Shown: positions 5,774-7,285 of the stretch, piece by piece
Position numbering within the stretch: the first letter of the stretch is position 1
Layout of the letters: the number at the start of each line of letters is the position of its first letter
Made by a program: the position numbers and the translations under genes
DNA from: Planctomycetaceae bacterium
GTDB taxonomy: Bacteria > Planctomycetota > Planctomycetia > Pirellulales > UBA1268
Assembly (NCBI GenBank): GCA_005791575.1
Contig: SXWA01000009.1
Span: 1 to 43,238, forward strand
Direction: 5' to 3'
DNA: 43,238 bases
The notes under the pieces: model-generated
What the model saw: the letters and a program-made list of their open reading frames with translations, nothing else
Databases searched by the model: none
What the model was told of the DNA's origin: nothing

Positions 5774-7285
5774 ATGCAGCGACTCCGGGCGATTTCACGC
5801 AGTGCCCTTGCGGCCTGTGGCCAAAGTCCACACCTGGCCTTTGGCCACTCGAAAACCGACGGTTTTCACGGGAGCTTTGCTCCCGGCACCGGATCCCTCC
5901 GGTGCGGCAGGCTGTTTGTCCACAGCCTGCTGGCGGCCTTCGCCATCGTTGGCAGCGCCGGAGGCGACGAATTCGCACCGGCGTTTCCGCAGGATCCGGT
6001 GGGCGCCATCGACGGCGAGATCGCCGGGGCGACTCCTGCACCCCAGATGCAACTGGGCGAGATCGCCGAACCGGGTGGGCTGGTCGCGGTGGAACCGATC
6101 CGCGAGGGCCTCCCCAGCCTACCGGACCGGCTGGCCGACGACATGCGGCTCGACGAGCCGATGCTGGAGCAGATGCCTGACGAGCTCAGTTCGGGCAACT
6201 GGTTCTCGCTCGGCCAGTATTACGGCTCGGTCGAGAACGTCTGGATGGGACGCAACCGCGAGTACCGCCGCGTGGTCGGCCGCGACGTGCTCATTCCCGT
6301 GCCCTTGGGCCGCAACAAGCAGGGGGTGTTTTCCACCGACTCGATTCCCTACGACCTCGCGCCGGGGGCGCGGGTGACGCTCGGGACGTTCCTCGGCCGT
6401 GACTATCTCAACCGCGACCAGTCGCTCGAACTCACCTATTACGGCGGGTTTTCCTTCGCGATCAACGACACCTGGAACGCGATCATCCTCAACAGCGGCA
6501 CGGCGTCGTCGTTCCTCGTGCCGACGATTGCCGCCGCCTCACCGGGCTTCACCGGTGCGCAGGAATACGACCTCAAGACCACCTCCAACTTCAACAGCCT
6601 GGAACTCAACTGGAAGCTCCATCGCCGCCTCGGGCGCGACAAGGTGACGATGTCGCCCAATGGCGACTGGACCAAGCATGCCGAACGCGGCTGGCTCCCC
6701 AGCCTGATCGTCGGCCCGCGGATCGCCAACGTGAACGAGACGTGCACCTTCAGCGGCCGCATGCCCGGTCAGCCGGTGTCGACGTTCGGCGGTGACTATG
6801 CGATCGAAACGCAGAACTGGCTCCTCGGCCTCAACCTCGGCGGCGAGCTCATCAGCCAGAACGAGTTCTTCTACTGGGGGCTCCGCGGCCGGGTCGCACC
6901 GGCGATCTCGTTCACCGCCAACCAGCAGTCGTTCTACGGGGTCAACAATTACCTCCCCTCGTCGATCCCGATCCGCGGTCTCGACGGCAATCAGATCGTG
7001 ATCGACGGCGTGCCGCAGACGGTCACCGTGCCCCAGGGCACGGAGAGTTGGCAGATGGCGGCCACCCAGACGGCCCCCGGCTTCCTCGGCGACCTCTCGA
7101 TCCTGGCGGGCTGGAACGTGACTCCCAACTTCGCGGTCCAGTGCAGCTACGACTTCCTCTGGATCGGTGGACTGGCGACCGCCACGCGGCAGTTCAACAT
7201 GAACAAGATCCGCCAGAACCCGATCGACGGCGGCGGGCAGATGTTCCTCAACGGCTTCGCCTTCGGCATCAACGGTACCTGGTGA
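5774..7285 (+). CDS. BBP7-family-like outer-membrane beta-barrel protein
   Basis: GNWFSLGQYYGSVENVWMGRNREYRRVVGRDVLIPVPLGRNKQGVF..., beta-rich, ends ...FGINGTW (C-terminal aromatic residue typical of outer-membrane proteins). ATG 5774 or in-frame GTG 5762. Confidence 0.75.
   Translation: MQRLRAISRSALAACGQSPHLAFGHSKTDGFHGSFAPGTGSLRCGRLFVHSLLAAFAIVGSAGGDEFAPAFPQDPVGAIDGEIAGATPAPQMQLGEIAEPGGLVAVEPIREGLPSLPDRLADDMRLDEPMLEQMPDELSSGNWFSLGQYYGSVENVWMGRNREYRRVVGRDVLIPVPLGRNKQGVFSTDSIPYDLAPGARVTLGTFLGRDYLNRDQSLELTYYGGFSFAINDTWNAIILNSGTASSFLVPTIAAASPGFTGAQEYDLKTTSNFNSLELNWKLHRRLGRDKVTMSPNGDWTKHAERGWLPSLIVGPRIANVNETCTFSGRMPGQPVSTFGGDYAIETQNWLLGLNLGGELISQNEFFYWGLRGRVAPAISFTANQQSFYGVNNYLPSSIPIRGLDGNQIVIDGVPQTVTVPQGTESWQMAATQTAPGFLGDLSILAGWNVTPNFAVQCSYDFLWIGGLATATRQFNMNKIRQNPIDGGGQMFLNGFAFGINGTW
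5814..5934 (+). repeat. 121-bp multi-hairpin element, copy A, inside the N-terminal coding region of the BBP7-like gene
   Basis: About 88% identical and equal in length to 29409-29529 by manual alignment (15 differences); five consecutive inverted repeats. Confidence 0.93.

What the first reader, a model, noticed from the sequence alone, without database searches (positions are those of the whole stretch)
5814..5934. 121-bp five-hairpin element embedded in frame in a signal-peptide region (copy A), with a second copy 23.6 kb away
Seen directly: the region is five consecutive inverted repeats. H1 gtggccaaag/ctttggccac (5817-5826, 5839-5848). H2 gaaaacc-gac-ggttttc (5851-5867). H3 gggagc-ttt-gctccc. 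H4 gcaccgga-tccc-tccggtgc. H5 gcaggctgt-ttgtcc-acagcctgc. A gap-free copy lies at 29409-29529 in an unrelated secreted-protein gene. Both copies are read in the same frame (GQSPxxAFGHxKxxxFxGSxAPGTGSLRCxRLxxHSLLA). Both sit between the N-terminal start and the hydrophobic core of the signal peptide, so the element itself supplies the beginning of that core (RLxxHSLLA). Inference: this is a mobile or selfish palindromic element that tolerates translation, conceptually like the in-ORF Rickettsia palindromic elements, or a structured RNA regulating translation or export that has been recruited to secreted-protein genes.
Basis: partly seen in the sequence, partly recalled or inferred. Interest (0 to 1): 0.92.

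Follow-up and report, generated by a model that had tools for sequence, protein, structure and literature searches.

The report
In-frame hairpin mini-transposon in planctomycetes
The element is one of at least about 120 copies of a 119-base non-coding jumping sequence made of hairpins; it uses the end sequences of a known type of transposon, and some copies, including the two reported here, have landed in frame inside the export signals of secreted-protein genes and are apparently translated.

Summary
The element is 119 bp (5811-5929; copy B 29406-29524). The genome holds at least 150 model hits (scoring limit reached), about 120 distinct copies examined. Single copies are flanked by identical 4-mers (36/79 against 4.5±2 shuffled; consensus CTAG/CTGA/CTAA/CTGG): a target-site duplication. 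Orthologues of both genes lack the element, so these are derived insertions, not paralogous N-termini. Its imperfect terminal inverted repeats (CAGCCYGTGG...CCACAGCCTG), with CTAG, also flank IS1182-like transposase genes in related genomes: it is a MITE. 119+4=123 bp, 41 codons, so insertion keeps frame; survivors sit between genes, at gene ends, on stop codons, or in frame in about 12 N-terminal hydrophobic signal segments; gene bodies are avoided (5 against 43 expected). Hairpins H1-H4 covary strongly across genera; H5 is specific to the window's lineage. I found no evidence for recruitment as an export or translation signal: the translated insert changes faster than the rest of both proteins. 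What maintains the hairpins is open. New family of a known kind, with precedents in Rickettsia RPEs and enterobacterial RU elements.

The parts
5811..5929 (+). Copy A of the element (119 bp), left end CGGCCTGTGG (mutated from CAGCCYGTGG), right end CCACAGCCTG
   Evidence: alignment of 30 copies and profile search of about 120 copies; coordinates checked
5807..5810 (+). left copy of target-site duplication (CTTG; 3 of 4 bases match the right copy)
5930..5933 (+). right copy of target-site duplication (CTGG)
5817..5848 (+). H1 of copy A; its 5' arm is part of the left terminal repeat
   Evidence: 97.7% of cells paired across genera
5851..5867 (+). H2 of copy A
   Evidence: 96.7% paired, compensatory changes
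5869..5885 (+). H3 of copy A
   Evidence: 94.5% paired
5886..5905 (+). H4 of copy A
   Evidence: 94.5% paired; all 7 pairs with double changes
5908..5929 (+). H5 of copy A; its 3' arm is the right terminal repeat; H5 is a stem only in the window's own lineage
   Evidence: 77.5% paired across genera
5774..7285 (+). Gene A, secreted protein of 503 aa (from ATG 5774; a GTG at 5762 is the more conserved start) with copy A in frame in its signal peptide
29406..29524 (+). Copy B of the element (119 bp)
29402..29405 (+). left flank of copy B, CTCA (a near-identical strain has Ala here, consistent with CTGG)
29525..29528 (+). right copy of target-site duplication of copy B (CTGG)
29412..29443 (+). H1 of copy B
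29446..29462 (+). H2 of copy B (GAAAAGC..GCTTTTC where copy A has GAAAACC..GGTTTTC)
29464..29480 (+). H3 of copy B
29481..29500 (+). H4 of copy B
29503..29524 (+). H5 of copy B
29330..31654 (+). Gene B, secreted protein of 774 aa (weak Pfam match to PF07494 Reg_prop) with copy B in frame in its signal peptide

Best explanation
It is a MITE: a 119-bp non-autonomous DNA transposon whose imperfect terminal inverted repeats (CAGCCYGTGGCCAAAG ... TTTGTCCACAGCCTG) are recognised in trans by an IS1182-like DDE transposase. The transposase inserts it at a CTAG-like tetranucleotide (C-T-R-R preferred) and duplicates those 4 bp. Shown: mobility (copy number, duplicated 4-mers, orthologues without it) and the same ends plus CTAG around IS1182-like transposase genes in related genomes. 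Inferred: that this transposase moves it. Because 119+4 = 123 bp = 41 codons and some of its frames lack stops, an insertion into a gene can leave the protein in frame. Copies in gene bodies are mostly lost; those in signal-peptide hydrophobic cores, where sequence is flexible and in-phase Leu codons (CTN plus R) match the target, survive and are probably translated as a passenger peptide. Copies on stop codons survive too, because the target contains TAG/TAA/TGA. The internal hairpins H1-H4 are kept in the transposing lineage, more likely at DNA level (foldback geometry, or palindrome repair by template switching) than as RNA; this last step is the least certain.
For: At least 150 model matches in the genome. 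Among 79 single copies 36 have identical left and right 4-mers against 4.5+-2.0 in 10000 shuffles (max 13), with many different duplicated 4-mers (CTGA, CTGG, CTAA, CCAG, GTAG, CCAA, TCAG); elsewhere 56 of 101 identical against 28.6+-3.1. The orthologues of genes A and B inspected in related genomes, congeners included, lack the element. IS1182-like transposase genes in the same taxonomic family have the same ends next to CTAG: L435 CTAG-CAGCCTGTGGAAAAAG...(1491 bp, 457-aa ORF)...-CTAG with right repeat CAGGCCGTGGACAAAG; one-sided or degraded examples among L419-L428, one of them (L423) in the same genus. In an Acidobacteriota MAG an IS1182-like gene (L342) and a 158-bp MITE (L306) share 22 identical terminal bases including CTAG. 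Placement: gene-internal 5 vs 43 expected, intergenic 38 vs 12.9, 5' ends 26 vs 14.8, 3' ends 10 vs 3.7. In-frame copies recur in near-identical strains (11, 16 and 10 member sequences for genes A, L113 and B). Covariation of H1-H4 across genera: 89 double-change cells vs 27+-3.5 shuffled.
Against: No IS1182-like gene was found in the window's own assembly (74.5% complete, 274 contigs), and none of the family's transposases reaches the NCBIfam IS1182 cut-off (at most 156 vs 270 bits), so the transposase assignment is 'IS1182-like'. The best-studied IS1182 member, IS1272, replaces stem-loops without target duplication (PMC5678879), unlike this element. The two window copies have imperfect duplications (3/4 for A; CTCA/CTGG for B). 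The MITE idea alone does not explain why internal hairpins covary.
Confidence: 0.85

Rival explanations
1. A mobile element as above, but with the hairpin core under selection as RNA (terminator, mRNA stabiliser or translation control), so that copies in 5' ends and 3' ends of genes are retained because they regulate.
For: Strong covariation of H1-H4; stems diverge less than loops within the genome (3.9% vs 11.3%); excess at gene 5' and 3' ends; stable folding.
Against: One-sided changes in stems are 155 mismatches against 51 G-U, no excess of G-U; both orientations occur; H2/H3 are replaced by a different long hairpin in other genera; no Rfam match; excess at gene ends is expected from purging of gene bodies and from stop codons in the target motif.
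Confidence: 0.12
2. The element has been recruited to secreted-protein genes because its 3' end encodes a useful signal-peptide start (RLFVHSLLA).
For: 9 of about 12 in-frame copies in N-terminal hydrophobic segments use the frame that encodes RLxVHSLLA; a comparable RU-2 case, Y. pestis YPO1552, is described (PMC2759123).
Against: That frame follows automatically when the target CTNR is an in-phase Leu codon, which signal peptides are rich in; the empty sites already encode complete-looking signal peptides; the insert-encoded residues differ at 3 of 40 positions between near-identical strains against 3 of 463 (A) and 5 of 734 (B) elsewhere, that is, relaxed constraint.
Confidence: 0.07
3. HUH (Y1/RAYT) mobilisation of a REP/REPIN-like repeat at a fixed tetranucleotide, without target duplication.
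For: Palindromic units, tetranucleotide (CTAG-like) at the foot, high copy number, as in GTAG-tagged REPs (PMC3733652).
Against: The left and right 4-mers vary together, which a fixed recognition tetranucleotide does not give; DDE-type transposase genes carry the same ends.
Confidence: 0.03
4. Simple paralogy of two N-termini.
For: Two similar N-termini in one window.
Against: At least 150 matches in unrelated contexts; orthologues lack it.
Confidence: 0.005

Closest known systems
MITEs of bacterial insertion sequences (review PMC10969869)
   Same: Under 500 bp, non-coding, terminal inverted repeats, short target duplication, ends shared with an IS, stable stem-loop transcripts
   Different: G+C-rich, about half of the testable copies touch a predicted gene, and a core of several separate covarying hairpins; no IS1182-related MITE of this kind was found in the papers searched
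Rickettsia palindromic elements (RPE)
   Same: Palindromic, about 120-150 bp, inserted in frame in unrelated protein genes with the peptide retained (PMC10969869)
   Different: Here a likely transposase and a target motif are identified; the in-frame copies concentrate in N-terminal signal segments; no sequence comparison with RPEs was made
Enterobacterial RU-1/ERIC, RU-2, RU-3 (PMC2759123)
   Different: RU elements duplicate TA; here 4 bp CTAG-like, different ends and host phylum
IS1182 family elements (IS1272)
   Same: Transposase domains PF05598, PF01609 and PF13751 in L435; best NCBIfam match of the L342 relative is IS1182
   Different: IS1272 replaces a stem-loop target without target duplication (PMC5678879); here 4-bp duplication and no inverted repeat at the target
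REP / REPIN / GTAG-tagged repeats (PMC3733652, PMC3116915)
   Same: Palindromic repeats with a tetranucleotide at the foot, high copy number, also reported in planctomycetes
   Different: Target duplication present; DDE-type rather than HUH transposase genes share the ends

Membership tests
MITE | Short, non-coding, high copy number | tested here: met
   119 bp in most copies, at least 150 matches; codon model sees no coding signal in the element except at its 3' end
MITE | Terminal inverted repeats | tested here: met
   CAGCCYGTGGCCAAA against CAGGCTGTGGACAAA, imperfect; better preserved in 158-bp relatives
MITE | Target-site duplication | tested here: met
   36 of 79 identical 4-mers, shuffles 4.5+-2
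MITE | Ends shared with an autonomous element | tested here: met
   L435, L424, L419 and others; L342/L306 in one Acidobacteriota MAG
MITE | Mobilised in trans by that transposase | not testable with these tools
   needs a transposition assay
IS1182 family (for the autonomous partner) | Transposase scores above the NCBIfam IS1182 cut-off | tested here: not met
   best 154-156 bits against cut-off 270; 0 of 74 genomes over it; hence 'IS1182-like' only
IS1182 family (for the autonomous partner) | PF05598 plus DDE domains | tested here: met
   L435: PF05598 1.2e-15, PF01609 3.1e-13, PF13751 7.5e-9
IS1272-type inverted-repeat replacement | Target is a stem-loop, no duplication | tested here: not met
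   no complementarity around 62 targets (2.63 vs 2.57+-0.16 over 8 positions); duplication present
Rickettsia palindromic element | In-frame presence in unrelated protein genes | tested here: met
   about 12 in-frame copies in N-terminal hydrophobic segments; P0001-P0004
Rickettsia palindromic element | Sequence relationship to RPE families | not tested
   no RPE sequence was compared; claim is 'works like', not 'is'
REP/RAYT | HUH transposase, fixed tetranucleotide, no duplication | tested here: not met
   4-mers covary left and right; HUH genes themselves were not searched
Known structured RNA (Rfam) | Match above gathering score | tested here: not met
   no match on the elements

The most novel reading that the evidence does not exclude
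The multi-hairpin core is not just by-product DNA: it is a selected, replaceable structured module (as RNA or single-stranded DNA) carried between IS1182-like ends, swapped between genera (H2+H3 against one long bipartite hairpin), so that the element is a mobile structured cassette that repeatedly adds 41 translated codons to signal peptides or a hairpin after stop codons and thereby alters expression or export.
Probability: 0.12. Interest if true: 0.75.

Novelty: new member of a known kind. Interest (0 to 1): 0.5.

Why it matters
It gives a clear case, outside Rickettsia and enterobacteria, of a mini-transposon whose insertions are repeatedly kept in frame inside protein genes, with the target motif, frame arithmetic, empty sites and a probable transposase all identified. 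That makes it testable whether such inserts are passengers or raw material for new signal peptides. Practically, the repeat inflates N-termini in annotation and breaks planctomycete assemblies (33 contig ends lie within 300 bp of a copy).

Tried and rejected
Rfam families: none on the elements. IS701-type transposase PF13546 as partner, chosen because I recalled a CTAG-like duplication for that family: only 7 of 74 genomes have it and no link to these ends was established; dropped once the IS1182 link appeared. Stem-loop targeting as in IS1272: no inverted repeat at the target. RNA-level selection on resident copies: no G-U excess. Paralogy of two N-termini: refuted. Internal restart of translation in copy A: no in-frame ATG/GTG/TTG inside the element (copy B has one TTG, in RLLIHS), so copy A must be translated through if the gene is expressed. 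Weak model hits (30-50 bits) in genera g4, g6, g7 first looked like noise; reading them showed a related subfamily with the same ends and H1 but a different core. Whether the number of open frames in the element exceeds chance was not tested formally; it looks unremarkable at this G+C.

Full report
OBSERVATION. The five inverted repeats are there in both copies. Each copy folds as five consecutive hairpins at -75 and -72.8 kcal/mol, z -8.6 and -7.4 against dinucleotide shuffles. The copies are 88% identical without gaps.

HOW MANY COPIES. A BLAST search of the window's genome (G000, 3.84 Mb in 274 contigs, 74.5% complete) gave 53 places. A covariance model from 30 copies gave 150 matches, all it was allowed to score, nearly all full length. 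I fetched about 120 distinct copies. Most are exactly 119 bp. Many are in head-to-tail tandem, joined by a single 4-mer. The element is in both orientations relative to genes.

IT MOVES. In 79 single copies the 4 bp left and right of the element are identical in 36; shuffling partners gives 4.5±2.0 with a maximum of 13 in 10000. The duplicated 4-mers differ between copies (CTGA 6, CTGG, CTAA, CTAG, CCAG, GTAG and CCAA 4 each, TCAG, CTAC, ATAG ...), so this is a duplication of varied targets and not part of the element. The preferred target is C-T-R-R. Elsewhere (mainly other genera of the family, plus public MAGs) 56 of 101 are identical against 28.6±3.1. Orthologues of gene A in three congeners and in other genera, and of gene B in one congener and in other genera, have ordinary N-termini and no element. 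The two window copies are therefore derived insertions. Removing 123 bp restores uninterrupted signal peptides. In a near-identical strain copy B has Ala where the window has Thr next to the left junction, as expected from an intact CTGG duplication (inferred from protein, DNA not seen).

WHO MOVES IT. Scanning GTDB genomes for CTAG plus the left end found many Planctomycetaceae/Pirellulales MAGs, and also Acidobacteriota, Hydrogenedentes, Gammaproteobacteria, Polyangia, Armatimonadetes and others. In an Acidobacteriota MAG the end is followed by a broken transposase whose best NCBIfam match is IS1182, and the same MAG has a 158-bp MITE with 22 identical terminal bases. IS1182-like genes in the window's own family lie next to the same ends and CTAG: L435 has both ends, CTAG on both sides, 1491 bp and a 457-aa ORF with PF05598, PF01609 and PF13751; L424 and L419 also show both ends; further ones show one end, including L423 in the same genus. 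None passes the IS1182 equivalog cut-off, so I call the partner IS1182-like. None was found in G000 itself, which is incomplete. IS1272, the studied IS1182 member, replaces stem-loops and leaves no duplication (PMC5678879); I tested for inverted repeats at 62 targets and found none.

WHY SIGNAL PEPTIDES. A codon-usage hidden Markov model on reconstructed empty sites classified 86 single copies; random sites with the same 4-mers in the same loci served as null. Gene-internal 5 observed, 43 expected; intergenic 38 vs 12.9; first 200 nt of genes 26 vs 14.8; 3' ends 10 vs 3.7. So gene bodies are purged, and ends and N-termini tolerate insertion. About 12 copies are in frame in N-terminal hydrophobic segments (L001=A, L016=B, L008 with lipobox, L052, L055, L113, L117 sulfatase-like, L137, L151, L162, L169, L176), judged by hydrophobicity and eye, not by a signal-peptide predictor. 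All are in open frames; 9 use the frame that ends in RLFVHSLLA. That frame is the one produced when an in-phase Leu codon supplies the first three bases of the target, so target preference can explain it without selection for the peptide. Insertions on stop codons follow in the same way from TAG, TGA and TAA in the target. The frame is kept because 119 + 4 = 123. In other genera the element is often 118 bp, so frame preservation is not a general design.

IS IT TRANSLATED. Gene callers predict proteins containing the insert in 90% clusters with 11 (A), 16 (L113 gene) and 10 (B) member sequences, so the open frame is stable across assemblies. Between the window and those relatives the insert differs at 3 of 40 residues in A and 3 of 40 in B, the rest at 3 of 463 and 5 of 734. 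This points to a tolerated passenger. There is no direct evidence of translation.

THE HAIRPINS. On an alignment of 26 elements from at least four genera, H1-H4 are 94-98% paired, with 17 pairs showing double changes (16 of them in H1-H4) and 89 double-change cells against 27±3.5; slid controls drop to 34-49% paired. H5 is a stem only in the window's lineage. In genera g4, g6, g7 the ends, H1, H4 and H5-like parts stay, but H2+H3 are replaced by one long bipartite hairpin. Within G000 stems diverge 3.9% and unpaired positions 11.3% from consensus, and one-sided changes give 155 mismatches and 51 G-U. Double changes without a G-U excess fit maintenance at DNA level in the active lineage, for example by template-switch repair of quasi-palindromes, followed by neutral decay of each copy. 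This is inference; RNA-level selection is not excluded.

RANGE. In the window's family 61 of 74 genomes and all 12 genera have matches at E<=1e-3, though many are weak. In a 250-genome sample of the order at E<=1e-8, matches are in 19 family members and 1 outsider. In other phyla, relatives with the same end and CTAG are mostly 157-159 bp and fold as one long interrupted hairpin.

VERDICT. A new, abundant MITE family of one planctomycete family, likely served by IS1182-like transposases, whose copies are tolerated in frame. In-frame MITE fusions, including one in a signal peptide, are described for RPE and RU elements (PMC10969869, PMC2759123), so the phenomenon has precedents.

Noticed in passing
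G000 contig ends, e.g. C43, C18, C273, C212, C57, C75, C251, C117: 33 contig ends lie within 300 bp of a copy, often in tandem arrays; the element is a likely cause of assembly breaks.
   Followed up: partly
L306, L307, L308, L320, L330, L340, L345, L356, L372: Foldback elements of almost constant length (157-159 bp) with the same left end and CTAG on both sides in Acidobacteriota, Gammaproteobacteria, Polyangia, Armatimonadetes and Planctomycetota; the constant length across phyla is unexplained.
   Followed up: partly
5918-5926 and right ends of relatives (L038, L076, L084), IS ends L420, L425, L432: The right terminal repeat in many relatives contains TTATCCACA, which (from memory) is a perfect DnaA box; in the window copies it is degraded. 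Possibly coincidence.
   Followed up: no
L026 around 1620: A solo H1: TTAGCAGCCTGTGGCCAAAGTCCATCCCTGGACTTTGGCCACAGGCTAA, a palindrome made of two left ends next to a full copy, perhaps a minimal derivative.
   Followed up: partly
7259-7342: Three perfect 27-bp tandem copies spanning the stop codon of gene A (each encodes ...FGINGTW-stop).
   Followed up: no
34992-35830: Three tandem copies of a 288-bp unit (62-73% identical) in a large open frame.
   Followed up: no
L170 about 1505-1614 and L072 about 1501: A truncated copy at what looks like the same place in G000 and G002, abutting a relic of a PF13546 transposase: an old shared insertion.
   Followed up: partly
P0003: A 698-aa predicted protein whose C-terminus is an in-frame copy, a case of C-terminal extension by the element.
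   Followed up: no
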